Below are positions 1 through 30,500 of a DNA stretch of 64,000 bases, piece by piece (within the stretch, counting starts at the first letter, position 1; every line of letters starts with the position of its first letter). Both the position numbers and the translations under genes were made by a program. This stretch comes from Reticulascus tulasneorum (taxonomy: Eukaryota > Ascomycota > Sordariomycetes > Glomerellales > Reticulascaceae). Location of the stretch: positions 2,232,001 through 2,296,000 of the forward strand of contig LSAX01000008.1 of NCBI GenBank assembly GCA_001557505.1, read 5' to 3'. The notes beneath the pieces were generated by a model that was not told where the DNA came from, made no database searches, and saw only the letters and a list, made by a program, of their open reading frames with translations.

Positions 1-1373
1 ACGATGAAGAGGCGCTAACTGACGATGAAGAGGCGCTAACTGACGATGAAGAGGCGCTAACTGACGATGGCCACGATCTGAATGATGATGAACGCGACCT
101 GACTGATGATGAACGCGATCTGACTGAGGGTGGCCACGATATGAATGATGATGAACATGCTCTTATTGACGATGAACACGATATCACCGATGATGAACTC
201 CCTGTTAGACAGCGGGCCGAGGGACTTCAATCAATCATCAACAACGGCACCAAGGCGTTTAACGAGAAAAAGCAAGAGGTTGCGGATGGAAAAGTCGGTG
301 CAATGGTCCAGAACACAATCGACAAGGCGATGGTGGAAGGTTTGGGCGACCGAATTAAGCAGCACGTTGACGAGAGAATGGACGAGAAGATTGACAAACC
401 ACTCGACGAGAAGCTCAACAAAAGGCTCAACGAGAGATTCGACGAGATGCTTGACGAGATGCTTGACGAGAAGCTCAACAAGAAACTCGATGAGATGCTT
501 GGTGAGAAGCTCACCAAGCAACTCGATGAGGAGCTCAACAGAAAGCTCAACAAGAGATTTGACGAAGTGCTTGACGAGAAGCTCAACAAGAAACTCGACG
601 AGAAGCTCAGCGAGAAGCTCAGAAAGATACTTGACGAGATGCTTGACGAAAAGCTCAACAGGAGACTCGACGAGATGCTCGGAGAGAAGCTCACCAAGAG
701 ACTCGATGAGATGCTTGACGAGAAGCTTACCCAGAGACTCGATGGGATGCTCAGCGAGAAGCTCTCCAAGGAGCTCAACAAGATGCTCACAATGATGGTG
801 AACGAAACAGTTGCCAAAGAATTCAAGGCCAGAGTGGAGGAACCCGTCGCCAATAAAACAGATGAACCCGTCAACAATCCAAAAAGTGGCATCCAAATCA
901 CCCGTGATGAGTTGACCAGCATCATCAAGGAACGGGATAGCACAATGCTGACTTCATTCGATCGACTGGTGGCAACGGTGCAGGGCGAAATCAGCAACTC
1001 ATTGACAGCGGCTTTTGGACGACAGCAGCAGATGCGACACGATTCTATCGCCAGAGAGTCTCCACGAGTGCCATCATATTCTCTAGCGTTCGATCCGGCT
1101 CGCCGAGAGTCATCAAGACTCGCATCGCCCTCCATGCTTTTCGATGCCCGCCGAGATTCAACACAACCAGCTTTTGTATTGCCGCCTCAGCCAGCATTCC
1201 CAGCCAGGAACGAATTAGAAGGACACCATTTTGGCCAGCTACAACCTAACTTCTATCCCTCGCCATCGCAACCAGTGCCCCAGACATATGGCATGGGTCA
1301 TCAAGAGCGACGGGACTCAAGCCAACTCGCCAGACCCAATTTCGCCAGAGACACCCAAGAGACTAATCGCTGA
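1..1373 (+). CDS. Repeat-built coiled-coil protein, 5'-truncated by window edge
   Basis: The reading frame is open from base 3, so the ATG at 141 is probably internal and the true N-terminus lies outside the window. Three parts are visible. Bases 3 to about 206 encode about ten acidic 7-residue units (DDEEALT, DDERDLT, DDEHALI), the first three being identical 21-bp repeats. From about 342 to 848 there are about 43 uninterrupted 4-residue units, each three polar or charged residues plus one hydrophobic residue (DEKL, NKRL, DEML, GEKL, TKRL), predicting a long amphipathic helix. The last 170 residues are Ser/Pro/Gln-rich with repeated RRDS/RRES motifs and look disordered. No catalytic domain and no family that I recognise. 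The gene seems to have grown by 12-bp and 21-bp slippage. A structural or scaffold role is only a guess. Confidence 0.7.
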   Translation, partial: DEEALTDDEEALTDDEEALTDDGHDLNDDERDLTDDERDLTEGGHDMNDDEHALIDDEHDITDDELPVRQRAEGLQSIINNGTKAFNEKKQEVADGKVGAMVQNTIDKAMVEGLGDRIKQHVDERMDEKIDKPLDEKLNKRLNERFDEMLDEMLDEKLNKKLDEMLGEKLTKQLDEELNRKLNKRFDEVLDEKLNKKLDEKLSEKLRKILDEMLDEKLNRRLDEMLGEKLTKRLDEMLDEKLTQRLDGMLSEKLSKELNKMLTMMVNETVAKEFKARVEEPVANKTDEPVNNPKSGIQITRDELTSIIKERDSTMLTSFDRLVATVQGEISNSLTAAFGRQQQMRHDSIARESPRVPSYSLAFDPARRESSRLASPSMLFDARRDSTQPAFVLPPQPAFPARNELEGHHFGQLQPNFYPSPSQPVPQTYGMGHQERRDSSQLARPNFARDTQETNR

Positions 1374-2071
1374 GCTTGTCTCGAGCAAGTTGGAACTTTG
1401 ATGATCCGGACGTGTCCTTTGTTCTTTGGGAGGGCGATGATACTGTTGGTTACTGGGTCTTGAATCCTCTCCATCACCTAGCTAGATTGTCAATACACGT
1501 GTATCGAATGGGCGGCCGTTTGTGGTCCTTTATGGGTTGTTTGTCGACTGAGACTACTTATAGTGCTGTAGACCGTCTTAACCCCAGCCGTCTTGCCACA
1601 CAAATACCAGTGCCTCCAAACTTAACCGTTTCCACTAGCGAGAGCGCTATGCTAGTCTGCCACATGAAGGTGAATGTACACGAACGCCACACAAATCATT
1701 GATCATGTAACCTGCCGACGATGTAAGCCGACACTATGATGAAAGAAACGTCTATACACACATCCGCTGATTATGAACAAGCCGGATGATGCACGACCCA
1801 ACCCCACTTTCGGTTCCGTGTTCTACATTCCAGTCAACGTCCAGGACAATGAAGTCAATTGTGGGTGAACAAAGACTTGTTTGATGTGGAATAAAGAGAT
1901 TGTGTACGCCCATCCATGCTGTATCCCAAGCCTTGTGGAAGCATTCGCTAGTATATATAGCAGCTCTCCCTCCCGGTCAGAAAGAGCTCTCCATCCAGAG
2001 CTCTCCATCCAGAGCACGCATCCATACATCGAGACAGCCGATCCACAACCAGTTGCCATCAATATATCAAG
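1374..2071. other. Intergenic; TATA box before the Hce2 gene
   Basis: No convincing gene is seen. A TATA-type element (TATATATAG) lies at 1952-1960, about 110 bp before the ATG at 2072. A short tandem repeat (AGAGCTCTCCATCC twice) lies at about 1984-2012 in the likely 5' leader. Confidence 0.55.
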
Positions 2072-2647
2072 ATGCAGTTCACTAACCTTGTTGCCACAGT
2101 CTTTTTTGGCCTCGTTTCCATCTCCGGCGTCCGTGGGCTCTGGATCCCTCCTGCCCATCTAAACATCACCCGCCCTCCTCCACCTAAGCCCGACATCAAC
2201 ATCTCTCATCCCTCTCCACACTCTGGCATCTCCCCGCGTGCAATCTACTACTTCACTTCCCGGAAAAAATGGAAACGAAACCTCTGCGGCGGCTCCTCCT
2301 TCACCGAAACGACCTCCAACGCCGCCTTGAGCAGCGACTGCCAGGAACTGTCGTCGCAGATCTTCCATCAACCGGGCTACTTCACGGCCATGGGCCCCTG
2401 GGACATCACAATGTACCAGCCTCTGCTCACTTACGGCACCTGCTCGTTTGGGATCAAGCCTGCGAGCGAAGATGACTTTTGGATGTACGCTTGGTATGTA
2501 GGCAACCTTGACGTTGGCGACCTGCTTCGTGACTCGGTCTTGATATTTGGCAAGGATGGGATGGTTGGAGCCGAAGGCCAGATGGGCTGCAGGCTTGGAG
2601 AGAGTAAGATGAATGTCCACTGGAGCATCTACAATGCTTACCCTTAG
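2072..2647 (+). CDS. Small secreted Hce2/Ecp2-like effector candidate
   Basis: 191 residues, intronless. A signal peptide is clear (MQFTNLVATVFFGLVSISGVRG). A Pro/Asn-rich linker follows, then a domain of about 110 residues with four cysteines in the contexts NLCGGSSF, SSDCQEL, YGTCSFG and QMGCRLG. This spacing resembles the Hce2 domain (homologue of Cladosporium fulvum Ecp2), a family of secreted fungal proteins that includes plant-interaction effectors and necrosis inducers as well as fungus-fungus antagonism factors. It would be secreted and held by two disulphides. The upstream TATA box and compact structure suit a tightly regulated secreted protein. The family call rests on the Cys motifs and length; the role here is unknown. 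Confidence 0.65.
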   Translation: MQFTNLVATVFFGLVSISGVRGLWIPPAHLNITRPPPPKPDINISHPSPHSGISPRAIYYFTSRKKWKRNLCGGSSFTETTSNAALSSDCQELSSQIFHQPGYFTAMGPWDITMYQPLLTYGTCSFGIKPASEDDFWMYAWYVGNLDVGDLLRDSVLIFGKDGMVGAEGQMGCRLGESKMNVHWSIYNAYP

Positions 2648-3920: not shown

Positions 3921-4555
3921 GTAAACAGTACTGGCAGGGTCATGGATGGGTTTAATTGTCTCATATCCTTGCCATGCCGAGTACCTCCGTGGAGTCGATC
4001 CGCACTCGAGGGGATAGTTCCGCACAAGCTTTCCCGCAGAAGATTCTACAGTAAAGATATGGGATTTAGCTCCCGGCCAGTTCCAGTATCAAGCCACGCT
4101 CACGAGCCATAGCCGCTGTATTGAATTTCTAGCTTGGTCGCCCGATGGTAGTAGACCTGCGTCTGGATCAGCAGACGGTAGTTGAAGATCTGAAATAGGG
4201 CTACCGGCCAGTGTCAGGCTTTGCTTGAGATCAGTAATGTTGATTTTCTATGTTTAGACCGGGTCATGGCTCAAAATTTACAACGAGTGTCGGCATATTT
4301 GATTCGCAACCCTCCACGCCTTCAAGAGTTTCGGCTGCAGACTCGCACTACAGCCCATTGTGCCTACCTCGACATGTCGAGTATGGCTTCAATGACAACG
4401 AAACCTGGATCACATATAAAGGGGGAAATCTTCTTTGGCTACCAAAAGAGTATAGGCCATATTTATCAGCCGTATCTGGAACGGCTGTAGCAATCGGCTG
4501 TGATTCTGGCCGCATTCTGGTCTTTAATTTCAAAGATAACCCAGTTTTGGGATGA
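3920..4555 (+). pseudogene. Remnant of a NACHT-WD40 (NWD) NLR C-terminus
   Basis: Forward-strand fragments in several frames read like the end of a fungal NACHT-WD40 STAND protein. At about 4038-4190 a WD40 unit reads DSTVKIWDLAPGQ, then SHSRCIEFLAWSPDGS and SGSADGS. A second unit (RATGQCQALLEI) follows after a stop where IWD is expected. From about 4390 to 4550 comes the tail typical of these proteins: ETWITYKGGNLLWLP, EYRPYLSAVSGTAVAIGC, DSGRILVFNF. Stops and frameshifts interrupt it and no NACHT domain is visible, so it is a dead 3' piece. Such genes are usually multicopy and fast-evolving, and many are lost. The family call relies on several independent motif matches in the right order. 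Confidence 0.6.
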
Positions 4556-5004
4556 TAAAATCACGTAGTACTCCTATCGTAGGATACAATTCTCCGACAG
4601 ACATTGCTACCTTTAAACGCCCTTTAGACTATCCTGATTTAGAACACATGGCGTCACCGCCGTCAAGGGTCGCTAAAACCATTATCAGTTTCGGGCTACG
4701 TCAGACGGCTATTAGTTGCTCTCGCAGGGGTGCAGGTAATGATCACCAGGAAACATCCACACACACGAAGTAACTACCCGGGTTAAATGATTTCATGGCA
4801 TAAGCTGACTATGGCTCGCGCGGCCGCATCGGTGGATAGGTATGTGGAGATGCTAGAGGCGGTACCTGCATCTGACGTTATAATCGGCTTTCGGCTTTTT
4901 ATATCCGCGAACTACTATAACCACTTGCGGTCCTCCTAGTTCTACTTGTCTCGCGTTACACGGCTTGGTTGACGGCCGATTCTAGAGACATACACGATCC
5001 GACC
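4556..5004. other. Intergenic
   Basis: No supported gene. A 73-codon frame at 4552-4773 has no family features and starts inside the end of the WD40 remnant. Confidence 0.4.
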
Positions 5005-5751
5005 ATGAGTATCACAAGTGCATTAACTGCCTTTCCCAGCATATCACCAATGCCCTCTCAGCTGGGTATTGTATGTGCGCGGTTCAAGGAGCCCCTGGAA
5101 CCGTGGGTGCCTTTCGCCGCAAACACATACCTCTATTCGAAAGGTGCTGTTCCACAAGCAAACGACTCGGTTCCCCACTCGTCTTTCCGAGCATATGTCG
5201 AGCTGAATAACACTGGACGCGAAGGGCAGACGCATCTTTACCACATCGTCAACCACTACGATGCCCTAGACGACATCATGATCTTCTCTCAGGCCAATCC
5301 CTTCGACTTACTCGCACCCGCCGCCAATACCACGCAGCAGATGGTTGACATTGCTCTTCAAGTTGCCGAGAACGATGTCACGCCTTTCAACCCGACCCTC
5401 TTCCACGACGTCGCTGATTGGGAAAAGATCGACTGGAACAGCTCGAAGCAGTCCATCTGGATCAAACCTAGCCAGGTTGCGTCCCTGACGCTTGCTCCAT
5501 TTACCCCGGGCGATTTTTGGACTGCCTTGCTTGGAGGATGCCACCCTCCTGCCATCCGCGCTATGCACGGCGGAACTTATGCCGTCAGAAAGGAGACGAT
5601 TTTGAAACATCCCAAGGCGGTATACGAGAGGGCGCTGGCTGCATTCGAGGAAGCCAATGCTGTCAACCCCGAGGTCGGGTTCTTCATGGAGCGGATGTGG
5701 TCGCCGATATTCTCAAAGAAATACCGACTGAAGAGGATTGAGCGCCCGTAA
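5005..5751 (+). CDS. DUF3431 family protein
   Basis: Single exon of 248 residues from the ATG at 5005; an in-frame ATG at 4969 would add 12 residues. The pattern matches the fungal DUF3431 family: an early variable segment with SQLGIVCARFKEPLEPW, then YLYSKG, then GREGQTHLYHIVNHYDAL and DDIMIFSQANPFD, and a C-terminal HGGTYAVRKETILKHPKAVYERAL segment. The family is widespread in ascomycetes and looks like a glycosyltransferase-fold relative, but its activity is not established. No signal peptide or membrane segment is evident in this model, although many relatives carry one, so an upstream exon may have been missed. Reading frame is intact. Confidence 0.65.
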   Translation: MSITSALTAFPSISPMPSQLGIVCARFKEPLEPWVPFAANTYLYSKGAVPQANDSVPHSSFRAYVELNNTGREGQTHLYHIVNHYDALDDIMIFSQANPFDLLAPAANTTQQMVDIALQVAENDVTPFNPTLFHDVADWEKIDWNSSKQSIWIKPSQVASLTLAPFTPGDFWTALLGGCHPPAIRAMHGGTYAVRKETILKHPKAVYERALAAFEEANAVNPEVGFFMERMWSPIFSKKYRLKRIERP

Positions 5752-5754
5752 AAC

Positions 5755-6179
5755 TGTTGCGTGTGTGGCTGAAGAAGCCGGTCGTGCACAGAGCGCCGGG
5801 GATTGCAACTACCATCAGATAACTAAGGCTAATGAACAAATTGCCAAAGTATACATACCGTAATGTGCCAGGTGGTTACAAAGTAGATGTCAGGTTTGGA
5901 CTAAGTGATTTGTATGCGACCATGTCTATCCCGCAGACTCTGCCATCAATCACGATGACCACTTCAGAACCAAATGACTAAATTACTTTATACCCATTGA
6001 GAGTAAGGTTCTGTATGTGCCTCATTTGGTGGTGGCGCAGCGAATAGTGGCTGGGGCTGAACTTGGTCGCCGATACTTGATAAGGCTGCGATGGCGGTGA
6101 TATCGAATCCCAGAACCTTCGCCCTGACATATCTTCTCGCCGGCAAGATGCCGTGGTGATCAGAAGATATTAGCGCATC
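5755..6179. other. Intergenic, upstream of HET gene
   Basis: No gene recognised; this holds the 3' end of the DUF3431 gene and the presumed promoter of the HET-domain gene. Confidence 0.4.
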
Positions 6180-8207
6180 ATGCCCCCGTTCAAGGATATC
6201 TACAACGCTGTCCTCAGTCGTAAACCTCACCGCTCGAGCCTCGGTTCAACGTACAAATACAAGCCTCTGGATCAAACCAAGGATGTCAGACTCTTGACGC
6301 TGCATCCTGGGAGTCGATGGCAAGAGGTGCGGATCTCACTCGAGGTTGTCAGTATCGGCCAAGATGAAGACGTCCCGTTTGAAGCACTGTCGTATGCCTG
6401 GGGGACAAGCAGAATGCCACGGCCGATTGTAGTTCAAGACGAAGAGGCCGCGAAAGTGCTTGGGTCGTTGTACGTTACGGAGAATTTGGGACAAGCACTC
6501 CGGTATCTTCGTTACCATCAGCGTAAGAGGGTTATGTGGGTCGATGCCATTTGCATCAACCAAGCCGATACTCGGGAGAGAAACCACCAAGTATCCGTCA
6601 TGGCAGATATATACCGCCGGGCTACTCAGGTCATTGTATGGCTGGGACAAGAGAAACAGAATAGCTCGCTTGCCATGGGCTTGATACAAGACCTGGGCTC
6701 GAGAGTCAGGGTGGACTGGCAGCATTACACCATCAACCCTTCGGCGAACAAACAAGACGAGATTGGCTGGGCAGATCCTCACACCCGGTTTCCGCACTCC
6801 TCGAACTCGCTCCACGCCGTCTACTTGTTGCTCCAACGGCCCTGGTTCGAAAGACTGTGGATCAGACAGGAGATTCAGTTGGCCAAGAAAGCACAGGTGC
6901 AATGCGGTCTATACCAAGTTGATTGGGAGCAGTTTCGCTCTGCTACGTACTGCTTGTTCATGAAACCAGGCGACTACGTGGACACGAAGAAGCAGATGGA
7001 CCCGCTCAAGAAGAGACTGGAGCTGATCTTACAGTTTGCAACGCCATATAAAAGATACTGGCTGCCAGACATCTTGTACGACACGCAGTCTTCCAGGTGC
7101 TCGGATCCTCGGGACAGAGTATACGCAATGCTCGGTCTCCTCGTCAAGCGACACCAACTACTGGGCATCGAACCAGACTACTCCAAGAGTGAACTGGACA
7201 TCTTCCGCGATGTCCTTCTCCTCGATTTGACGCGCGGGCGATCTTTGGCCATGCTTTGCAGTTGTCGAATCGCCAATCCGAACAAGATCACAAGCTGGCC
7301 TAGTTGGGTGCCCGATCCATCAGATATGGCAAGGCCAAGCCCACTTTACTACTCAAGAGTGCATGGTGGCATAAATCCAGTCGCGCAATGCCTGGACGGA
7401 CGGGCTCTCAAGGTTATGGGGCTCGAGATAGCGACTGTGAGCAAAGTGGATCGAGTTAAAAGCACCGAGGGAAACCCACTTGATCGAGCGGAAGAGCTGT
7501 ATCGGATTATTTCAAGGCGAGATCTCTCGGCAGAGTATGTCGGCGGCGGTCAGCTTGTTGGAGCGTACGCGGACGCGCTCTGCACAGGCCGTTTCGCAGA
7601 AAACTACCACCCGATTCGAAGAGATCTTCCAGAAAGAGCGCGAGCTAAAGATGATCTTCAAAGCTTGATTGATAATTACGGCGATATAGACGTTCCTACC
7701 ATCCGGCTTGTCCTGGAACAATCTCTTGAGAAGTTTCTGTCGATGGCAGTCACACAGACCGCGGAGCGGGCTTTCTTCGAGACAGGCCAGGGTTATATCG
7801 GTCTAGGTGCGAAAAATGTCGAGCACGGGGATAAATTATGTGTACTCTTTGGTTGCCCCTTGCCTATCATTCTACGACCGCTGGGCTTCCAAAAGTACCA
7901 AGTTGTTGGAGACGCATACTGCCCCGGAATAATGCAAGGACAGGCGGTACTTGGCAACCTACCAGACGACATGGATATTGTGCTGGACGCTCCGGGTAGG
8001 AACTCCAAGTTCCCCTTTTTACTTCGACACGCGAACACTGGGGATATGATCCATATCGACCCTCGGGTTCTAGAGATTTTCCCGGGCATAACGTCGAATT
8101 CCCAGGAAGATCGTACAGTCTGGGTAGATGAAGATGGCGATGTGAACGTGGCCCGGGAGGCGCTGAATACCACCTTCGATGACATGGTGGAGTTCTGCTT
8201 AGTATAA
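6180..8207 (+). CDS. HET-domain (heterokaryon incompatibility) protein
   Basis: 675 residues, one uninterrupted exon. The HET signature begins at residue 67 with FEALSYAWG, continues with VMWVDAICINQAD at about 118-130, and closes with IYRRATQVIVWLG at about 147-159. HET domains trigger programmed cell death or growth arrest when non-self is recognised during hyphal fusion; they are distantly TIR-like. The segment after residue 200 (RPWFERLWIRQEIQLAKKAQVQCG) is the usual conserved extension of this large class. The C-terminal region lacks any NACHT, WD40 or ankyrin partner, so it is a stand-alone HET protein. No signal peptide. The intact frame among neighbouring wrecks suggests it is maintained. 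Confidence 0.9.
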   Translation: MPPFKDIYNAVLSRKPHRSSLGSTYKYKPLDQTKDVRLLTLHPGSRWQEVRISLEVVSIGQDEDVPFEALSYAWGTSRMPRPIVVQDEEAAKVLGSLYVTENLGQALRYLRYHQRKRVMWVDAICINQADTRERNHQVSVMADIYRRATQVIVWLGQEKQNSSLAMGLIQDLGSRVRVDWQHYTINPSANKQDEIGWADPHTRFPHSSNSLHAVYLLLQRPWFERLWIRQEIQLAKKAQVQCGLYQVDWEQFRSATYCLFMKPGDYVDTKKQMDPLKKRLELILQFATPYKRYWLPDILYDTQSSRCSDPRDRVYAMLGLLVKRHQLLGIEPDYSKSELDIFRDVLLLDLTRGRSLAMLCSCRIANPNKITSWPSWVPDPSDMARPSPLYYSRVHGGINPVAQCLDGRALKVMGLEIATVSKVDRVKSTEGNPLDRAEELYRIISRRDLSAEYVGGGQLVGAYADALCTGRFAENYHPIRRDLPERARAKDDLQSLIDNYGDIDVPTIRLVLEQSLEKFLSMAVTQTAERAFFETGQGYIGLGAKNVEHGDKLCVLFGCPLPIILRPLGFQKYQVVGDAYCPGIMQGQAVLGNLPDDMDIVLDAPGRNSKFPFLLRHANTGDMIHIDPRVLEIFPGITSNSQEDRTVWVDEDGDVNVAREALNTTFDDMVEFCLV

Positions 8208-10741: not shown

Positions 10742-12316
10742 TTAGCTTAGTCGAGCTTCCTCGATTCTTCTGCTGGCGTCCTGCAGTTCTATCTCAGCTT
10801 GCTGGACTCGGCGGCCCCTGCTGCGGCGCTTTTTCCACATAGGGGCGGCCACCTCGGCGCCGACAAACAGGATTAGTCCGACGAAGAGCGTGCCCGCCTG
10901 GTCCGACTCGTGGATCGACTGGGGAGCGCACGGCATGAAGAAACATGACCGTGACACGTGGACAGTGCGCGCAATATACCCCTGGAAGACGTAGGCGATG
11001 ATGTGAAGTATGATGGTGGTCATGGAAACCGACACCAGCAGTGCATAGCCCAAGACCACGATTGGAAACAACAAAACCGGGCCACCTTCATTGTTATAAC
11101 TCCTCGCGCATGATACGAGCGGGTAGACGATGAACAAGAAGACGGCAGCTATCTTCCAAGAGTCTTTGCTACGAACGCTTTCGGTGATGCGGGAGATTCT
11201 GAGGGGCCAGGTTCGATTGGTGCTGTCTTGGCCAATCTGTAGCTTGTGACTGATCTTAGTGCAGAGCTCAAAGAGGAGCTTGGCAGAGTAGACGCATACA
11301 AGCACATAACTGATAAAAGCCGCGCCCCAGAGATGCCATAACTTGTCCATGCCCTCCCAGTACATGGCTGGAACATGAATAAAGGGCCCACTTTCAGCAA
11401 GGATGTCGACCCTGCCGAGAATGAGACTCGCGGTGGCCAGGGAGCAGGCAGGCCAGAACAACCCGAGCCGTAGGACGAAGATTCGCCACCGCCAAAACCC
11501 TTCTCCGCTGAGGGCAGCGTACCACTTGTAGAGCAGCATCTGAAAGAGTCCGTGCAGGATGCCCCAGAAGACGACGGTGATGGCTGCACCGACCGACCCG
11601 GCCTCCTTTTTCCAGGGTTCGGCCTCCTTGGACTGGCCGCTGCTGCCTTCGCCTCCCTGAGGACTACGCCGGAGGCGATGCAGGGCGATGGAATGCCGGG
11701 CCAACTCGACGGCGACCCAGTTCATGCCAGCCAGATACACCCAGGCGTTGATGTCGGGAAATTCATCGTTATTGGGGTTCAGGGCGTGAACCCAAGACCC
11801 GCAGATGCAGAGGAACCAGCCAGCCCACGTCCCAGGCCCATAGAGTCCGCTGACATTGGCGATGCCGAGCTCGTCCGGATCTTCTCCGGAGACATCGAGT
11901 AAGAGAGGCTCTGAAGGTTCGCTAGTAGCCGTTGCGGGCGTATTGACGGCAATTGCCGTCGCCGTCGTCGTCGTCGTCGTTGCCAGAGGTGTTACTGTCA
12001 TCGCCTTCGGCTCCACAATACCTGTGGCAGCTGTTGACGGAAGCCGCATTGAGAGGGAGACGATAGCCACATATATAAACAGCCGGCGCTGCCCGAGGCG
12101 AATTGCATGAGGCATTTCTGAGGATGCTCTTGCGCCGGATTGTTTAGAATCAAAATCAAGAATTAAGACTGCAACTCTGAACAGGAACGGCATATGAGCT
12201 GTCGCGTGGCGTGCAGTGTTGGTCAGAGCCTCGAAGACTTCAGCCGCACCGCTTCTTGCCCGATTGAGGCAGCCAAGAGGCGCCGACCCTTGACTGCGAT
12301 ACAAAAGCTTTATCAT
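10742..12316 (-). CDS. Multi-pass membrane protein of unknown function
   Basis: Open frame of 524 residues without introns. The first about 70 residues are unlikely to be real because they fall on repeat DNA; the Met at about 12112 (MPHAIRLGQRR) starts a signal-anchor-like segment and is a better start. A Thr-rich stretch encoded by a GTC-type microsatellite (about 11957-11985) is followed by a conserved-looking NVSGLYGPGTWAGWFLCICGSW segment and about seven hydrophobic helices, then a basic Arg-rich, helical C-terminus. The DELGIANVSGLYGPGTWAGW motif recurs in uncharacterised fungal plasma-membrane proteins; I know no function. It is the first of three minus-strand genes leading up to the repeat-peptide precursor, all transcribed away from it. 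Confidence 0.6.
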   Translation of the reverse strand: MIKLLYRSQGSAPLGCLNRARSGAAEVFEALTNTARHATAHMPFLFRVAVLILDFDSKQSGARASSEMPHAIRLGQRRLFIYVAIVSLSMRLPSTAATGIVEPKAMTVTPLATTTTTTATAIAVNTPATATSEPSEPLLLDVSGEDPDELGIANVSGLYGPGTWAGWFLCICGSWVHALNPNNDEFPDINAWVYLAGMNWVAVELARHSIALHRLRRSPQGGEGSSGQSKEAEPWKKEAGSVGAAITVVFWGILHGLFQMLLYKWYAALSGEGFWRWRIFVLRLGLFWPACSLATASLILGRVDILAESGPFIHVPAMYWEGMDKLWHLWGAAFISYVLVCVYSAKLLFELCTKISHKLQIGQDSTNRTWPLRISRITESVRSKDSWKIAAVFLFIVYPLVSCARSYNNEGGPVLLFPIVVLGYALLVSVSMTTIILHIIAYVFQGYIARTVHVSRSCFFMPCAPQSIHESDQAGTLFVGLILFVGAEVAAPMWKKRRSRGRRVQQAEIELQDASRRIEEARLS

Positions 12317-12368
12317 GCAGGTACGCCACCACTACCTAAATGTTGTAGGGATAGCATACACATCTTCT
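12258..12368. repeat. Direct repeat copy A (111 bp)
   Basis: Closely matches 14426-14536 in the same orientation; both begin GCCCGATTGAGGCAGCCAAG and share CATGCAGGTACGCCACCACT, and both end CATCTTCT. Copy A overlaps the annotated 5' end of the membrane-protein frame, copy B lies upstream of the next minus-strand gene, so both sit at about the same place relative to a gene start. Identity is roughly 80-85% by eye. Confidence 0.75.
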
Positions 12369-12955: not shown

Positions 12956-13975
12956 CTAACATCTCCACCAGGCCCTCCCTGATGGCTGCCTTTTGGATTT
13001 GGCAATATAGTACTCGGCGACAAGATTTGGATAGAGATAGAATATATAAGGCAAGATCATTTTGGCGATGATAAGAAAAACAGCAATCCCGATTGGTCCG
13101 ACGATAGAAAATACCGTGAATCCATAGGAAGCAGCATGGAAAACATCGTTTTGGGCAAGTTGGTTCGTCCCTAGCCCTAGTTGCATTGCCGTCAAAACAA
13201 GAGCGATGTAGGCCGCGGCCGTACCTAGCCATCCCAGGTTATGACGGAATGAAGTCGCAAGCGCATCAGCGAAGGTGGGCCACACGCTGAACTCGGGGTG
13301 GACTCGCAGCTCCCCAAAATTGAATCGTTCGTGTATCTGCTGGTCGAAATCCTTCTTGCGTGCGAGGGTTTTGACGAATTCATGCCAAGTATCCCAACGA
13401 ACATCTTGTGGAATAAGATTCAGGTCCTTAGCAATCGTAAAGTCGGTTTCGTACTGAACGAGCGAGACATAGCTGTATAAGAAGCCAAGAGCACATCTCC
13501 GCAACGTTCTCCTCCTGCAGCATGGGTACTCATCGTGTAGGCAGGACAAATGGTCAACCCAGAAACTCGAGTTCAATAGGTATCGAGGTATCGGCTTAAG
13601 AAATATGCGCTCACCCCACCACACAAGATGTTGATCCATTCGCTCCGTGAGGACGAATGTGCGATTTAATACGAGCTGTTGATTGAGCGCTTTAGGTGCT
13701 TGTCGCGTGCCCCAGAGGTGGAATCGCGTTGTGTTGGTGTCCTGGAAGTGCAGGGAGAACTCTAATTCCAGGAACGGAAGAAGAGTGACAGTGTTGATGG
13801 TCACGATTTTGGACCCCTTTATTCGTAGCGCTACGGGAAGGGTTCTTATGTCCTGAAAGGAAGCCGGGAATGGCGAAGGTATGGTCCCATCATCAGAGAG
13901 CCCGAGAGCATCTTGCGCGACTGGTATTTTAACGTTTTCAACAGGAAACAGCCTATCTGTGAATGGGGCCTCCAT
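12956..13975 (-). CDS. Conserved fungal membrane protein, DUF6601-like
   Basis: 339 residues. The central block TERMDQHLVWWGERIFLKPIPRYLL, followed by RCALGFLYSYVSLVQYETDF and IAKDLNLIPQDVRWDTW, matches from memory a large fungal family (I believe DUF6601; relatives are often mis-annotated as subtilisin-like proteases, but no protease triad is present). Two or three C-terminal membrane helices follow (GWLGTAAAYIALVLTAMQ; FTVFSIVGPIGIAVFLIIAKM). The sequence just before the ATG reads as a splice acceptor (TGTGACAG), with a GTAAGT donor preceded by an ATG at 14039-14041, so a tiny first exon may exist. Unknown function. It lies between the other membrane protein and the UstYa-like gene, all on the minus strand. 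Confidence 0.65.
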   Translation of the reverse strand: MEAPFTDRLFPVENVKIPVAQDALGLSDDGTIPSPFPASFQDIRTLPVALRIKGSKIVTINTVTLLPFLELEFSLHFQDTNTTRFHLWGTRQAPKALNQQLVLNRTFVLTERMDQHLVWWGERIFLKPIPRYLLNSSFWVDHLSCLHDEYPCCRRRTLRRCALGFLYSYVSLVQYETDFTIAKDLNLIPQDVRWDTWHEFVKTLARKKDFDQQIHERFNFGELRVHPEFSVWPTFADALATSFRHNLGWLGTAAAYIALVLTAMQLGLGTNQLAQNDVFHAASYGFTVFSIVGPIGIAVFLIIAKMILPYIFYLYPNLVAEYYIAKSKRQPSGRAWWRC

Positions 13976-14589
13976 CTGTCACAGTCCATATATAAGCGGC
14001 TATTTAGGCGAAATCATAAGGTTTAGCAATGGACTTACCATGGCCCTCTCACAGTATCTTGCAGTGAAGTCCCAGATATTGCAGTGCGATTGAGTAGTCG
14101 AAATCGAAAATCACGGGCACGCGATTGTGTAGGGGCTGGCATGTTCTGTAATTGACTCAAATGAACGTCCCGACCACCAGATGTATGGCTGCCTTATGAC
14201 TGCATTGGAGTATGTATGGCTGCCTTATAACTGCAGAGGGGGCTTGTACCTGGTTCAATTTCTACTCCGATAGTCGATAGCCTCGTCTACATAGCCCTGA
14301 GCATACATATTTAGAACACTATACACCGAAAGCTCTACCTTGGACAATATTAGTTAAGAAGTGCACCTTCTAACTTTTATAAATTTAAAGGTGTAGATAA
14401 AGCCAGTCAACACCTTAAGAAATGCGCCCGATTGAGGCAGCCAAGAGGTGCCAAGTCCCGACTGTCAACACAAGCTTTCTCATGCAGGTACGCCACCACT
14501 ACCTAATGTCGGAGGGATAACATACACACATCTTCTATGGTTAATGTTACATTGCGAGACTGCTGCTCACGCACAAGAATACCCACATT
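13976..14589. other. Intergenic with short repeats
   Basis: No gene. Holds an imperfect 30-bp-period tandem repeat at 14182-14234 (TGTATGGCTGCCTTATGACT and a near copy) and direct repeat copy B. Confidence 0.5.
14426..14536. repeat. Direct repeat copy B (111 bp)
   Basis: Partner of 12258-12368; same length, same orientation, mostly scattered substitutions plus small compensating indels. Lies between the UstYa-like gene and the DUF6601-like gene. Confidence 0.75.
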
Positions 14590-15631
14590 TCATACGTATC
14601 GCACTTTTTTGTTCGTGCCCAGGTCATCCCCAATGACCAGAAGAGAGGGCTCAGCCTCAACTTCCATAACTGTCTTCGGCCGGGAGATGTTTTGGAACTT
14701 CTCAATCGTCTTCGCGAGACCGACCTTCTTCTGCCATTCCAGAAGAGGCTGGTGCGCGACACACTGCCGCTTTATGTTAAAGTCTGGGTAAGGGTTCTCC
14801 TGCGTCTTCATCCACACATGAGAAATCAGATCCACGCTTGGGTAGCAAGTCAATGCTTGCAGAATGATGTCGAGGCAATGCGAGAGATGGGCCTGGTGTC
14901 TTTTGGGTGCCGATGAGCTGGTTGATGTCAGTCGGTCGATGCATGCCATAAGCCAAGTATCGGGTGAGTTCCACTTACAGATTCGCATACACGTCGCCGT
15001 AGTAGTGGTCAAAAAACGCATATTTTCTGATCTCATTGAGACAGTGTATCTGATGCTGTCCGTCCAGCTCGACGAGATAAAGGTCGGAGCCTAGACCCCA
15101 TTCCTCTGGCAGCGTGACTCCCATTGCAGGGTCTTTGCCCAGCTTCCTGATGTCATCTGCGCTGACACCGAAGAAGTCTATTTGTGCAATGTCTGCCCAT
15201 GCCTGATCAACCTCCGGGCTCGGGTCCTGTCGATAAATGACCGGTGGCTCGTAGTCGTTGAATAGCGCTCCTCTGACGGTTACTGTTTCCAGCTGGATTG
15301 GGATCGAGTCGAGGACTGGGCCTATGAGTTGTTAGCCATCTAATACCCATTTTGGCGTTGAGACGAACTGTATGGTGTGAGCTGCTTGATCAACCGTCTC
15401 GGGTCATGAAGCAGCGTCCATGAGTAGAAAAGGATCGCACACGATGCGAGGAAAAGAATCGCATTAACAACTGCAATCAACTTGAGTCTCCGACCCCATA
15501 CCTCTCGGATTTGAGGCTGGCGGTTGTCAGTATAAAACTAATACGGTGGATGTTTCTCGCATTCAACATACCGCTCCAGCAAGGTCCTCGACCGAATCTT
15601 TAGTTGGCAAACTTTGGTAGGTTTGTTTCAT
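14590..15631 (-). CDS. UstYa-like (DUF3328) oxidase, candidate RiPP-tailoring enzyme
   Basis: Four exons, 292 residues: 15631-15572, 15516-15369, 15321-14979 and 14917-14590. All junctions have GT..AG ends and keep frame; introns are 55, 47 and 61 bp. Residues 1-25 are cytosolic, followed by one membrane anchor (LIAVVNAILFLASCAILFY). The globular part contains both family hallmarks: HQIHCLNEIRK and HLSHCLDIILQALTC, i.e. two HxxHC motifs. UstYa-family (DUF3328) proteins catalyse oxidative cyclisation, chlorination or related steps in ustiloxin, phomopsin, asperipin and other fungal pathways, especially on Kex2-processed ribosomal peptides. Its neighbour 0.7 kb away is such a precursor, divergently transcribed, which makes a joint pathway the natural reading. 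Only one UstY-type gene is visible; ustiloxin needs two. Confidence 0.88.
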
Positions 15632-16340
15632 GATTTGGGATAGAATATTTTGAGAACTTAGGCGGCACGCAACCGAGACTGAGGGCGAGACCAAGTTGAT
15701 GTTGGAGACGGAGCCTCTACTAAAATTTCCAACGTTACATCAGTTGCCACAAGCGCCCGCATGATGTGATAAGCCTAAACTGCCCGCCCATGGTAAATTG
15801 ACCCTAGAGCCTGCTGAGGGGCACAGTTGAGTTACCCCTCGCTGGGGAAAGTCTGATAATTGGTGGCCTTTAGTAGACCGGTGGAAGCATGCAACAATGG
15901 CTACGTAGTTACGCCGGCAAAGCTTAAGTCGTCAACGTCTGAATATGGTCTGCGCCGCACCCGTAGTTGGAAAAACTATCTTCACCTGCCTACTCAAGCG
16001 AGATCTCCTATGGCGGCTTATCTCCACCTTCCTAGAGAAGGCAGTGACAAAGCATTATTTCTGGCCATGGTTTCTGATGCTACTTTGTAATAGTAATATG
16101 ATTCATCATTGTAGTTGCCATTCGGTAGATAGAAATGGATGGGCCGATGGCATCTAGAGAAGGATTGCTTCTTTAAGCAGGATATAGGATTGCGGCCGCT
16201 GTCGATCAATGCTTGCTCAATGCTTGTTCGGTACAGGATGGCTCTGCGAACAACGTTAAAATGGCTCTGTCGCCAGTGAAGACGACACACCATCCTTCCA
16301 TCCATTATTCAGTACGAAGATAAACTTGCTAGGCGTCAAA
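15632..16340. promoter_or_regulatory. Shared divergent promoter region, UstYa-like / peptide precursor
   Basis: 709 bp between the start of the UstYa-like gene (-) and the start of the repeat-peptide precursor (+). No other gene seen. A head-to-head layout would allow co-regulation; I cannot identify a specific operator. Confidence 0.5.
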
Positions 16341-16838
16341 ATGCATATCAAAAGCCTTCTTACAGCCCTCGTGGCATACAGCGCTGCTGTCGTCGCCCTT
16401 CCAGTAGAGGGAAATGGCCCGTCTGCCAATGTCCTCGATAAGAAAGCCGAGGCATATGGACCTCCTCTCAACCACCATATCATCGCCAAGGACAAACATG
16501 CTGAAGCATACGGAGCTCTTCGCAACCCGGACCTTGTCCCCCCCCCTACCAAGCGTGCTGAGGCCTATGGACCTCCTCTCAACCACCATATCATCGCCAA
16601 GGACAAACGTGCTGAAGCATACGGACCACCTCTCAACCCGCACCTTGTCAGCCCTATCAAGCGTGCTGAGGCCTATGGACCTCCTCTCAACCCACATATC
16701 GTCACCAAGGACAAACGTGCCGAAGCATATGGACCTCCTCTCAACCCGCATATCGTCACCAAGGATAAACGTGCTGAAGCATACGGACCTCCTCTCAACC
16801 CGCACCTAGTCAGCCCCATCAAGCGTGATGAGGCATAG
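16341..16838 (+). CDS. Kex2-processed repeat-peptide precursor (candidate dikaritin-type RiPP)
   Basis: 165 residues, one exon, ATG at 16341. Signal peptide MHIKSLLTALVAYSAAVVA, a short leader ending in DKK, then seven tandem units: residues 36-53, 54-72, 73-90, 91-108, 109-126, 127-144 and 145-162, and a DEA tail. Units 3-7 are 18 residues long and read AEAYGPPLN, then HHIIAKDKR, PHIVTKDKR or PHLVSPIKR. Unit 2 is divergent (AEAYGALRNPDLVPPPTKR) and unit 1 ends KH instead of KR. KR and KK are kexin sites, so secretory-pathway cleavage would release six or seven similar Tyr-containing peptides; the AEA start also resembles a dipeptidyl-aminopeptidase trimming signal. This is the architecture of UstA/PhomA-type precursors. 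There is no Trp-Cys core as in alpha-pheromones. Alternative: an unmodified secreted repeat peptide. The UstYa-like gene next door favours a cyclised RiPP. Confidence 0.85.
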   Translation: MHIKSLLTALVAYSAAVVALPVEGNGPSANVLDKKAEAYGPPLNHHIIAKDKHAEAYGALRNPDLVPPPTKRAEAYGPPLNHHIIAKDKRAEAYGPPLNPHLVSPIKRAEAYGPPLNPHIVTKDKRAEAYGPPLNPHIVTKDKRAEAYGPPLNPHLVSPIKRDEA

Positions 16839-20686: not shown

Positions 20687-22792
20687 ATGACATCCCTGAA
20701 CCTCAATCGGATTAGGAGCATGGATTCACACGTCTGCAATTACTGCCAGGTCCCGCTCACCGTGTCGTCGACACAGCTGATGCACCCTGTCTGCCGGATT
20801 CCTTTCCCTCACTCGACTAGCTTGGCTCGGCGCGCCGCTCAGGATGGGTGTCCCATCTTCCAGGCGGCGTACTCGCAGTTGGCTTGCCGCAGCATTTGGG
20901 GCCTGCTGCTGTCGCACATGTTCGGTCGATGCAACTGCTGCAGCGGATGGTGGCAGCAGATGCGATACGTAGTTCGGAGCCTGGGTCCAACACCGTTCCA
21001 GCTCCAACTTCCGGTGGCCTCGGTCGGAAGTGGATCGGCCTCACCACCAAGTTCCTTCGCTTATATCGATTGCGGCAATGGTCGGGCGGGAGGCCATTTT
21101 AATGCTTACACCCACACTGGTAGGGCAGTCACCATCGTCGGGTACTGCATCTAGAGGCTGATCCGATTTTCCTCATTAGGTGACCCTGCCGCCGTCATCC
21201 TGCCATCTTTTGATCTTGAAGTCAATACCATCAAAACAGTTGATAGTATACAGCGGTGGCTCCGAGCCTGTATATGCTTGGACGGGACGGGAAGCACAGA
21301 ACCCCGCGGGTTTAGGCCTATGCGCTTACTTTACCTTGGTAACAGTGCTGAATCGGAAATTGTTACGGTAACATCGACAGAGCACCTTGAGTTCCCCGCG
21401 TATGTGTGTCTCTCATATTGCTGGGGAGGACCTCAATCTCTAAGATGCACCACGCAGAGCTTTACGGGTTGCAAATCCTGGCCCATCCCCGTGCGCGATC
21501 TCCCCGACGCATTCCGAGACGCCGTCGAAGTATCGCGACAGCTCAACTTCCAATACCTCTGGATCGACAGCCTCTGCATCATTCAGGACGACATTATTGA
21601 TGTCGAACGCCAGATCCTGCAAATGCCTTACATCTACAAGAATGCCCAGCTCACAATTTGCGCCTCATCTGCCCAGTCGTGCTACGAAGGCTTCCTTCTT
21701 CCGCGGCCAGACTACAGCCAGTACCAGCTGCAACTTGACCTTCCCGATGGCCGACAGGGAACCGTCTTCCTTGACAAGGTTCTCTGGGCTTTCCCGCCCG
21801 CCACGGAGCCACTGGGTACTCGGGCGTGGGCTTTGCAGGAGCGGCTGCTCTCCCCGCGTTTGCTCGAATATGGCTGGAGGACGGCAAGGTGGTCCTGTTC
21901 TTGCTCGAGTCAGCACAGCGGCTTCGACGCCATTCCGGACTCTGGCGGCCTAACAGGGGCGAACGACGGACGGTCTAGCGACGGAGCTTTCCGCACTGCC
22001 ATCCTCTTTGGGTACCTTAACCCTCTCGGGATGCGACGCGTTGCCAGGTCGAAAGATGAGCTATTCAGTTGCTGGACTCGGATCGTTCGCCAGTATTCCT
22101 CGTGCATTCTCACGTTCCCGGACGACCGGCTAGCTGCCGTCGGTGGGATAGCTGCCGAGCTTCAGGCCATCACCGGAGTCCCATACCTGGCCGGGCTATG
22201 GAATGACGAAAGACTCCCTTCCTTCCTACAATGGAAAGTACTGTCGGCGCCGGACCATCTCTGCCCCCGGCCGTCCAACAAAGCGCGCGCTCCGTCCTGG
22301 TCATGGGTGGCAGTGGACAACGAGGTCATTTTCCAGAATAGCCGATCGGTCGTTGATGGCTTCCAGGTCATAAGTATCAACGTTGTTGGCGGATTCGGAA
22401 GCTCTGCGCAAGGCACGATGGTGCTAGAGGGTCGTTCACATACAGGATCCTGGTGGTATGGTGGCCCCGGCGCGGATTTTATACTTGAAGTTGATACATC
22501 GGGAAAGCAGGGCTTTGTTCATGTGAGACGGCCGGACTGCGATCTCCATCTCTGGCCAGACTGTACCCATGAGGTGATCACGTATGACAATGGGCTGGCG
22601 ATGGTCTCGTCGCAGGATTTGGTCTTTCTAGCCGTTGGCCGATCGGACATAGACCATCAAACAGTGCGTGGACTGTTACTGAGACGGGCGAGCGATCCTA
22701 AAACCCTCACGCGAGTAGGGCTGTTCCAAGCTAGGGACGAGGGAGTTTTTGCAGTTGGGGAGTGGGACGTGGAAAGAATCTGCATCATCTGA
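20687..22792 (+). CDS. HET-domain protein, two exons
   Basis: Exons 20687-21119 and 21180-22792 (60-bp intron, GTAGGG donor, ATTAG acceptor; the frame is kept) give 681 residues; a Met at 20720 is an alternative start. Exon 1 has a Cys-rich start (MDSHVCNYC) and a variable linker. Exon 2 opens with IQRWLRACICLDGTG and RPMRLLYLG, the usual lead-in of this class, then the HET domain: CLSYCWGG (about 221-228), YLWIDSLCIIQDD (about 270-282), and IYKNAQLTICASSA. Typical downstream blocks follow: PLGTRAWALQERLLSPRLLEY and DRLAAVGGIA with YLAGLWNDERLPSFLQW. HET proteins execute vegetative incompatibility cell death. Different HET subtype from the one at 6.2 kb, so the two are not a recent duplicate pair. 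Confidence 0.9.
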
Positions 22793-27570: not shown

Positions 27571-30500
27571 ATGGTAAGTGCCATCCTTTCCGTGGTGTGG
27601 TGGAACGGTGGAACACCTGCGGATCCGTGCCTGCAAGTGCGGGAGCGTCCGAAAGTTTCCTTTGACCACAAGCACCAAATCGCTGACAGTCGCATAGGGA
27701 TCCATCAACAAGCAAATCTCCCGCTACGAAACCACTGCCGTTTACACACATCCCGATGCGAAGGTCGACATCGTCCTGGTCCACGGCCTCAACGGAGGGC
27801 CCGACAAGACGTGGACCGCCAAGAATAACGTCTTTTGGCCAGCCGACCTGCTGCCGGCGTCGTTGAAGGATGCGCATGCGAACGTCTTGGTATACGGCTA
27901 CAACGCGGATGTCTACTCGAGCCGGAACGACCGCAGCGCGAGCGACAACTTCATCTTCCAGCATGCCCAGTCTCTGGTCACATCCCTGACGCTGTACAGG
28001 AAGAGCGAGGGGACGTTCAGGAACCCGATAATATGGGTGGCTCACAGTCTCGGCGGCATTCTCGTCAAGAGGGCGTTACTCTACTCGAACGACGTCCGGG
28101 TGCTGAACCACGAGGACTACCGGTCCATCTTCGTGTCCACCTTCGGAATCATATTCCTGGGGACGCCGCACACCGGCTCGGGCATCGCCACCTGGGGCCA
28201 GATGCTGCAGTCCATGTCGGATGTCGTCATGCCCAAGAAGCTGTTCGAGACCGAGTCGGTGCTCCTGAAGACGCTGAAGAGGGATAACGAGACGCTGCAG
28301 AACATCAACAGCCACTTTCTCGACGTCTACCAACGGTTCAAGATCCACATGGCCCACGAGAACCACAAGACCGACGTCAAGGGTACCAAGTAAGCATCCT
28401 CTTCGCAGACTGTGAACGCAAGCTAATCCAGCAGGCTCGTCGTGGTCGACGCAAACTCGGCCAGTCCACAGCTACCCGGAGTCACCTACTACGGCATCGA
28501 GGCCACGCATTCGGGCATGTGCAAGTTCGAGAGCAACAATGCACCGGGCTATCGCAATGTCTCGACAGCCATCAGGGAGTGGGTGGGAGAGGCGCCGCCC
28601 GTCATTCAGGTTCGGTGGGAGATTGAAGAGGATGAGAAGACGGCCAGAGCGAGAAACGAGGTCCAGGAAAGACTGCTCCCATTTGTGAGTACCCAGGCGG
28701 CGACAGGATGGCATGTCGTCTAAGCGTGATGCCATCCCCAGAGGTTCATCTGCTAACAAGACCAGACAAATCCCACAAGCCCCCAAGCAACTGGTAGGTC
28801 ATCTCAACGGCAAAGTGGTCTCCCCTCTGTCCCTGCATATCTCACCGGCACGCCGTCTGCACCTGCGCCGGGTCGGATTGAGACGGCCGAGACAGGAGAA
28901 CGGGAGGAAAGGAGGCGCTAGTTGGACATGGCTGATTTTGTTTCCGTAGATGACAGAAATAATCAAGAGTCCCCCACTTCACCCAGAGGCAGCTCGACCA
29001 CTATGTCTCCCATTGAAAATGCTCGCCCGGAGTCGGGAGTCGCAGGGCCGTCTCGTGAGCCGCTCTTCATCCATCCCGATCGGTTCCGTCCGAACTCGTA
29101 CTTCAAAGGCAGGGAAGGGGAGATGAAAGAGCTGCACAAGCTGCTTCTGGACAGGAAGCGAAGGTCAGAAGGCACGTCTGCCGTGCTCATCCAAGGCATA
29201 CCGGGCGCGGGCAAGACGCACCTGGCCCGGCAGTACGTGTTCAAGTATCGCGAGGCCTATCCGGGGGGTGTCTACTGGATCAGAGCCAAGACGTTGCAGG
29301 ACATGGAGGACGGGTTCTGGCAGATCGCGAAAAACGAGGCCATCAAGGAGCTGGTCGGGCAGGAAAAGAAGAAGGACCTGCAGAACCCCAAGAAGATGGT
29401 GGAGCTGGTCAAGAACTGGTTCAACGACTTCGAGGACTGGCTGCTGATTTTTGACGGGATTCACTTCGACAATCCGGCGGTCCGCGACTTCATTCCCGAC
29501 GTCAAGAACAGCAGCCTGATCTATACGTCGACCGAGCGCGCCGTGACGGGCGACTACCTGTACGACAACCCTGGAATCATAGAGCTGGAGCTTCTACCCA
29601 TTCGGGAAGCGCAGGAGCTGCTGCTGGAGGAGATGGAGAAGACGCGGCCGTGGACAACAGACGACCTGGGCAGGGCTATGGAACTCGTCCAGCTGATGGA
29701 CCGTCTTCCTTTGATGATACACGCGGCGGCACAGCAGATGAAGGCGACGAGAGAGCCGCTCGCAAAGTACCTCAAGTCCTTCAAGGAGAAGCCGAAAGTG
29801 GGCATCCTGCCGGCGTACAAGGCAGTGCGGGACCAACTGCAGGACAGGGGTGCCACGGCCGCCCTGAATCTCATCTACCTACTCTCCTTCTTCAGCCAGC
29901 ATATCCCTGTTGAAATGCTAGCCCTCGGAATGGAAGCTCTGGACAAGCGCACGCCGATCAAGACGAATGTTGTCGCATCCCGCAAGAAAAGCGTAAACAA
30001 AACCTTTGCCATCCTCATTGCCTTTGCGCTCATCGAACGGAACGAGATGGATGATATCCCGTCCGCGAGCAGCAGGAGCTCGAGGCAGAGCATCGACCTA
30101 GGAACGGACCTCTTGGATGTCATCAGGATGCACAGCATCGTTCAGTCATTTTTCATCGAGCTTCTGGTGGAAGAAAAGCAGCTGGCTTTCTGGCTCGAGA
30201 GGGCAATATCGGTGTTTTGCCGGTCCTACGACGAGGCCGACGCGCGGATCAAGCAGGACCCCAAAGCCGGCCTGCCGGACGACTACAGGCGGTATGCAAT
30301 TCACGGCAAGAAACTCATGGAGCATCTCGAACGGTACGGGAGGAAGGAAAAATCCCCCGAGCTTGCCGCTGCCAGGACCGAACTCCTGAATCGTATGAAA
30401 TGGTTCCCGGATGAGATCGACAAGCTGCAGAGGACAATATCCACTAATATCGTCAACGGCGGGGACGTGCCACATGGCTCGATTTTCGAACGGACAAACA

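What the first reader, a model, noticed from the sequence alone, without database searches (positions are those of the whole stretch)
14590..16838. Candidate fungal RiPP locus: repeat-peptide precursor beside a UstYa-like enzyme
The sequence shows a signal peptide plus seven tandem Tyr-containing units separated by KR/KK sites at 16341-16838, and 0.7 kb away a divergently transcribed DUF3328 gene with both HxxHC motifs. Known dikaritin pathways (ustiloxin, phomopsin, asperipin) are built on exactly this pair. The AYGPPLN-type core does not match any core I remember (YAIG, YVIPID, FYYTGY). No tyrosinase, second UstY, methyltransferase, peptidase or transporter with matching role is visible within 20 kb, so it would be a minimal or split pathway.
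Basis: partly seen in the sequence, partly recalled or inferred. Interest (0 to 1): 0.88.

Follow-up and report, generated by a model that had tools for sequence, protein, structure and literature searches.

The report
Fungal repeat-peptide precursor with cyclising enzyme
A fungal gene for a secreted precursor made of seven similar small peptides sits back to back with an enzyme gene of the family that ring-closes such peptides, and relatives of both occur in Colletotrichum fungi, so it is probably a small, undescribed member of a known class of fungal peptide natural products.

Summary
Window 16341-16838 (+) encodes an intronless 165-aa precursor: signal-peptide-like start, then seven 18-19-residue units starting AEAYG, cut at KK, KH or KR. 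Divergent from it, 709 bases away, lies a four-exon UstYa (DUF3328) gene, 15631-14590 (-), with HQIHC and HLSHC. In the six regular units the EAYGPPLN part varies only silently while the linker changes residues. The 3 precursor relatives at E <= 0.001 are all Colletotrichum and share EAYGPPxNPH. The UstYa protein forms a 100/100 group with 8 of 8 Colletotrichum proteins given to the tree. In C. navitas, the only species where both were seen, both are listed on a contig of 174,830 bases. Two of 20 other UstYa loci of this genome also carry a divergent repeat precursor. The alpha-pheromone gene lies elsewhere. No tyrosinase, second UstYa or S41 peptidase was found in the window. Best reading: a two-gene dikaritin-type RiPP locus whose Tyr is oxidised, probably ring-closed. 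Product and expression untested. Such pairs are common (22% of known repeat precursors): a new member of a known kind.

The parts
16341..16838 (+). Kex2-type repeat precursor gene (165 aa plus stop), intronless
   Evidence: relatives in Colletotrichum
16341..16403 (+). signal-peptide-like N-terminus (MHIKSLLTALVAYSAAVVALP)
   Evidence: sequence; judged by eye, no predictor available
16446..16820 (+). seven units AEAYG...; six are AEAYGPPLN[HP]H[IL].., unit 2 is AEAYGALRNPDL..
   Evidence: tandem array 16449-16800
16440..16445 (+). KK site before unit 1 (residues 34-35)
16821..16826 (+). last KR site (residues 161-162), end of unit 7
14590..15631 (-). UstYa (DUF3328) gene, exons 15631-15572, 15516-15369, 15321-14979, 14917-14590; 292 aa, hydrophobic N-terminal segment, HQIHC and HLSHC
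   Evidence: exon model by hand; Pfam PF11807 185.7 bits; genome search
15632..16340 (.). 709-base shared upstream region between the two divergent start codons
   Evidence: coordinates; no convincing element found

Best explanation
The pair is a two-gene dikaritin-type RiPP locus. The precursor enters the secretory pathway by its signal peptide (inferred). The membrane-anchored UstYa enzyme, with its paired HxxHC motifs, oxidises the Tyr of the repeated EAYGPPxNPH[IL] units, most likely closing a ring from the Tyr to a downstream residue (inferred; His at +7 and Ile/Leu at +8 are conserved candidates). Kex2 cuts at KR/KK and exopeptidases trim, releasing several copies of one short modified peptide (inferred). 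Shown here: gene structures, silent-only variation of the unit core, a shared relationship of both genes to Colletotrichum with both on one contig in one species, and no larger tailoring set found beside them. Not shown: expression, cyclisation, product, role.
For: Both genes open and divergent, 709 bases apart. In the six regular units, 4 of the 8 EAYGPPLN columns vary, all silently; of the next 7 columns, 6 vary with a change of residue and 1 silently. Over 20 units of four precursors, P5 is 19, P6 18, N8 16, P9 16, H10 17 of 20, and position 11 is I or L in 18 of 20; the units were located by the string EAYG, so EAYG itself is 20 of 20 by construction, but the full sequences show no regular unit without it. 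Residues before the unit differ between lineages (A here, mostly DxV in Colletotrichum). The 3 precursor relatives at E <= 0.001 are all Colletotrichum. The UstYa protein groups with 8 of 8 Colletotrichum proteins at 100/100, 57-65% identity, against 37-42% for the three best own-genome paralogues. C. navitas precursor LY79DRAFT_524846 and UstYa LY79DRAFT_593618 are both listed with a contig of 174,830 bases. The best-scoring own-genome paralogue (C32, 39%) also sits divergently beside a repeat precursor with EALYKGDGLYVLRTLAK x4, and a third pair has SADESYLPM x6. Published: 1,758 of 7,878 such precursors (22%) have a DUF3328 gene among the 15 closest genes, most often the next gene; Tyr is in 65.6% of their repeats against 38.2% of the others; just one DUF3328 protein is present in the asperipin-2a pathway (PMC7329392 section 7). 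The genome has a Kex2-type P-domain gene on C17.
Against: No product, expression or crosslink evidence. Of the 10 named species whose UstYa protein was listed, 9 returned no precursor; C. higginsianum and C. tofieldiae have the precursor but their UstYa protein was not listed. This may be missed annotation or 90% clustering, or real absence. UstYa homologues can also desaturate residues (phomopsin, passage in PMC10512285). Unit 2, one C. higginsianum unit and the last C. tofieldiae unit are degenerate. The YxI core and tyrosinase of ustiloxin and phomopsin are missing. No solved or predicted fold supports the catalytic reading.
Confidence: 0.62

Rival explanations
1. The precursor yields linear secreted peptides (signal or antimicrobial); the UstYa gene acts on something else and is a neighbour by chance.
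For: 6,120 of 7,878 known Kex2 repeat precursors have no DUF3328 gene among the 15 closest genes; both genes were seen in one relative species only.
Against: Shared contig in C. navitas; UstYa orthologue group in Colletotrichum; divergent adjacency again at 2 of 20 other UstYa loci; a Tyr in 7 of 7 units.
Confidence: 0.15
2. UstYa modifies the units without closing a ring: hydroxylation, or desaturation of a residue.
For: Three UstYa homologues of phomopsin biosynthesis are needed for desaturation as well as cyclisation (passage in PMC10512285).
Against: The known single-DUF3328 pathway, asperipin-2a, is described as cyclised at Tyr (PMC7329392 section 7).
Confidence: 0.17
3. Structural repeat protein of the cell surface whose dibasic-cut repeats coat the hypha (repellent-like; recalled, no call).
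For: Kex2-cut repeats also occur in such proteins (recalled).
Against: Pro- and His-containing units with an invariant Tyr; UstYa gene next door.
Confidence: 0.05
4. It is the alpha mating-pheromone precursor.
For: KR followed by AEA looks alpha-factor-like (recalled).
Against: A WC[TRV]KPGQPCW repeat precursor lies on C1, 7 pattern matches; the units here hold no W or C.
Confidence: 0.01

Closest known systems
Colletotrichum proteins ColKHC_12476, LY79DRAFT_524846, Ct61P_12748 (uncharacterised)
   Same: Unit EAYGPPxNPH[IL], signal-like start, KR/KK sites
   Different: 3 to 6 EAYG units instead of 7; mostly DxV before EAYG instead of A; C. tofieldiae protein ends in unrelated letters; not found in the papers searched
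Asperipin-2a pathway (Aspergillus flavus)
   Same: Kex2 repeat precursor with a single DUF3328 protein
   Different: Core FYYTGY (as given in the finding); four genes were expressed to make it (passage in PMC10512285), two seen here
Ustiloxin / phomopsin type (N. crassa POI2)
   Same: KR-cut Tyr repeats beside UstYa genes; a Glu two places before the Tyr (EDYxI against EAYG; EDYXI from a passage in PMC6339444)
   Different: No YxI core; no tyrosinase, second UstYa or S41 peptidase found in the window
Victorin, epichloecyclin, Venturia inaequalis precursors such as Cin3
   Same: Repeat precursor plus DUF3328 gene (passages in PMC10512285 and PMC9632046)
   Different: Unit sequences not compared here

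Membership tests
Dikaritin (RiPP from a Kex2 repeat precursor, cyclised by UstYa homologues) | N-terminal signal peptide | tested here: inconclusive
   Hydrophobic N-terminus by eye; no dedicated predictor
Dikaritin (RiPP from a Kex2 repeat precursor, cyclised by UstYa homologues) | Tandem near-identical repeats separated by Kex2 sites | tested here: met
   Seven units; sites KK 1, KH 1, KR 6
Dikaritin (RiPP from a Kex2 repeat precursor, cyclised by UstYa homologues) | UstYa/DUF3328 gene nearby with HxxHC motifs | tested here: met
   709 bases away, 185.7 bits, two HxxHC
Dikaritin (RiPP from a Kex2 repeat precursor, cyclised by UstYa homologues) | Tyr in the repeats | tested here: met
   7 of 7 units here; in the relatives units were located by EAYG, so not an independent count
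Dikaritin (RiPP from a Kex2 repeat precursor, cyclised by UstYa homologues) | Side-chain cyclised product | not testable with these tools
   Needs LC-MS/MS
Ustiloxin/phomopsin subtype | EDYxI / YxIx core | tested here: not met
   Units are EAYGPP or EAYGAL
Ustiloxin/phomopsin subtype | Tyrosinase gene in the cluster | tested here: not met
   None in the window; nearest on the contig about 45 kb from the UstYa gene
Ascomycete alpha-pheromone precursor | WC...GQPCW core | tested here: not met
   No W or C in the units; such a gene is on C1

The most novel reading that the evidence does not exclude
A single UstYa enzyme without a tyrosinase closes an unusually large ring (Tyr to His +7 or Ile/Leu +8, spanning the rigid GPPxNP stretch) in an EAYGPPxNPH peptide that is kept across Colletotrichum and this other lineage as an endogenous developmental signal, in the manner reported for N. 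crassa POI2, and not as a patchily inherited toxin.
Probability: 0.15. Interest if true: 0.65.

Novelty: new member of a known kind. Interest (0 to 1): 0.45.

Why it matters
Only five dikaritins had been reported by 2022 (passage in PMC10512285), against 1,758 precursors with a DUF3328 gene nearby. A two-gene pair with a unit shared between this genome and Colletotrichum is a simple case in which to ask what one UstYa enzyme does alone, and whether long-kept dikaritins serve the fungus itself. It also suggests that such precursors are easily missed in annotation: three Colletotrichum precursors were found although the UstYa protein was listed under ten named species of the genus.

Tried and rejected
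Alpha-pheromone reading: rejected, a pheromone-type gene was found elsewhere. Solved-structure relatives of the UstYa protein by sequence: none convincing (one match, E 0.7). AlphaFold2 model of the C. navitas relative P0004 from 20 proteins: mean pLDDT 69.0, pTM 0.56, blocks for residues 161-210 at 85-93; Foldseek against PDB: 0 of 98 matches at E <= 0.001, so no fold assignment. The sigma-70/terminator scan is not suited to a fungus; repeats in the intergenic region are short. The profile search with the four precursors returned the same three proteins plus P0024 at E 0.68, a 100-aa repeat precursor with KRAEAYGHLPNFVDDT units from a 1,275-base contig: a hint of a wider EAYG family, not counted as a relative; only the 7,991 candidates sharing most words were scored.

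Repeat detectors: the strict one (a 4-mer at least three times with dibasic sites between) and a looser one were run on the own-genome loci and the window. The looser one gave 15 hits on the real sequence and 10 on the reversed sequence, so it has little power alone. Kept by eye: window, L010, L017. Dropped: antisense and wrong-frame echoes of these arrays, L012 (Cys-rich), L018 (lysine-rich, no signal, two frames), L029, and two other window frames (3-1370, 48674-49327). L025 has little sequence on one side of its UstYa match (contig end), so that locus was half tested.

Tree: 15 of the 20 proteins, the window protein and four own-genome fragments (of 20 other loci). Left out: P0006, P0007, P0014, P0015 (all Colletotrichum) and P0022. 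10 of 17 inner branches are open and long branches are flagged; only the window + Colletotrichum group (100/100) is used.

Papers: PMC7329392 section 7 read whole, otherwise passages; PMC6339444, PMC10512285, PMC9632046, PMC12048977, PMC7099791 and PMC11943440 passages only. Supplementary files could not be read, so the Colletotrichum precursors may be listed in one.

Full report
What is there. At 16341-16838 (+) an intronless frame of 165 residues begins with a hydrophobic stretch and continues with seven units of 18 or 19 residues, each starting AEAYG. At 15631-14590 (-) lies a UstYa gene; reading three introns (55, 47, 61 bases) gives 292 residues with HQIHC and HLSHC and a Pfam UstYa score of 185.7 bits. 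The start codons are 709 bases apart on opposite strands. The exon model is mine and has no transcript behind it.

More than chance. The array scores 479 in Tandem Repeats Finder, the top score in the window. Among the six regular units, 4 of the 8 core columns EAYGPPLN vary, all silently, while 6 of the next 7 columns vary with a change of residue and 1 silently. Recent copying alone would not spare the core. Unit 2 (AEAYGALRNPDL) was left out of that count; with it, the core has changed residues too.

Relatives of the precursor. A search of about 5.8 billion clustered proteins found 3 at E <= 0.001, from C. higginsianum, C. navitas and C. tofieldiae. A profile search returned the same 3 plus one weak unassigned protein at E 0.68. 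Over 20 units of the four precursors the places after EAYG read P 19, P 18, variable, N 16, P 16, H 17, I or L 18 of 20. The units were located by EAYG, so those four letters are invariant by construction; read against the whole sequences, no regular unit lacks them. Degenerate units exist in three of the four proteins. The residues between the dibasic site and EAYG differ between the lineages.

The enzyme. The UstYa search found 20 proteins; the best 12 are Colletotrichum at 56-65% identity over 74-98% of the query, the other 8 at 31-43%. In a tree of 20 rows the window protein and the 8 Colletotrichum proteins given form one group at 100/100. In the own genome the precursor is single-copy and the three best UstYa paralogues are 37-42% identical. 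The C. navitas precursor and the C. navitas UstYa protein (which stands for a cluster of 11 sequences) are both listed with a contig of 174,830 bases. For a genome of tens of megabases (recalled) sharing such a contig by chance is unlikely; the distance is unknown. C. navitas is the only species in which both were seen: 9 of the 10 named species with the UstYa protein returned no precursor, and the UstYa proteins of C. higginsianum and C. tofieldiae were not listed.

Other pairs in the same genome. The 33 UstYa matches group by my reading into 21 loci including the window. Stretches of 10 kb around the 20 others hold two more repeat precursors with a signal-like start: L010, ATG at 6474 (+), units EALYKGDGLYVLRTLAK x4 after a first exon, UstYa at about 4485-5297 (-); and L017, 3004-2630 (-), SADESYLPM x6, UstYa match at 4755-5225 (+). 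Both pairs are divergent, as in the window. At the published mean of about 5.3 such precursors per strain, 200 kb of 42.8 Mb would hold about 0.025 (my arithmetic). The detectors differ, some picking was by eye, and a random background could not be fetched, so the comparison is rough. The L010 UstYa is the best-scoring own-genome paralogue of the window's.

What is absent. Tyrosinase: 0 of 20 matches in the window; the nearest on the contig, C34:2200282-2201195, is about 45 kb from the UstYa gene. UstYa: no second locus in the window. Peptidase S41: 0 of 5 matches in the window. Methyltransf_25: 0 of 52 matches in the window, but only 50 of 125 candidates were scored, and other methyltransferase or peptidase families were not searched. 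Pfam scans covered 30 proteins, 28 of them open frames picked from the left 35 kb, not all frames. Over their cut-offs they gave DUF3431, HET (2), DUF6601, DUF676, Hce2, AAA_16 and NB-ARC besides UstYa; under them PigL_N, Abhydrolase_6, nSTAND_NTPase5 and the MFS_1 fragment 17 kb off. The neighbours at 12956-13978 (DUF6601) and 10742-12331 (no family) could belong to the locus; nothing shows it.

How it most likely works. By analogy with the families: the precursor enters the ER, UstYa oxidises the Tyr of each unit, Kex2 (P-domain gene on C17) cuts at KR/KK, and trimming gives a short peptide. Conserved partners for the Tyr are His at +7 and Ile/Leu at +8 with GPPxNP between; which, if any, is joined is unknown. 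A one-enzyme pathway has a precedent, since just one DUF3328 protein is present in the asperipin-2a pathway (PMC7329392 section 7), though four genes were expressed to make that compound (passage in PMC10512285). The structure model of the relative P0004 is of middling quality and matched no solved fold.

How new. Pairs of this sort are common: 1,758 of 7,878. The unit was not found in print by these searches: AYG and related strings are absent from the main text of PMC7329392, PMC6339444 and PMC7099791, AYG from PMC12048977, and a library-wide search gave 5 papers on other subjects by listing. Supplementary tables were not readable, so it may be listed there. I file it as a new member of a known kind, with the cyclised product untested. 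A UstYa protein listed under ten named Colletotrichum species looks more like an endogenous function than a host-specific toxin; that is inference.

Noticed in passing
L030 (around G000:C1:4302983-4303702, minus): Alpha-pheromone-type precursor with seven pattern matches to WC[TRV]KPGQPCW.
   Followed up: partly
L010 4485-6920: Divergent UstYa and repeat precursor, units EALYKGDGLYVLRTLAK x4, signal-like start apparently on a separate first exon.
   Followed up: partly
L017 2630-5225: Divergent UstYa match and repeat precursor MKAAVILTLL..., six units with SADESYLPM.
   Followed up: partly
P0024 (1,275-base contig, unnamed source): Short repeat precursor with KRAEAYGHLPNFVDDT units and a Cys-containing EAYGCPSTPNR unit: possible wider EAYG precursor family.
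   Followed up: no
window 1961-2644 (+): Hce2 (Ecp2-type effector) domain protein, 76.2 bits.
   Followed up: no
window 3-1370 (+): Long frame of LDEKLNK-type and DDEHD-type tandem repeats at the window's left edge.
   Followed up: no
window 6174-8204, 21155-22789, 28922-32254: Two HET-domain genes and an NB-ARC/AAA gene, with a DUF676 hydrolase-like frame at 27698-28390, surround the locus.
   Followed up: no
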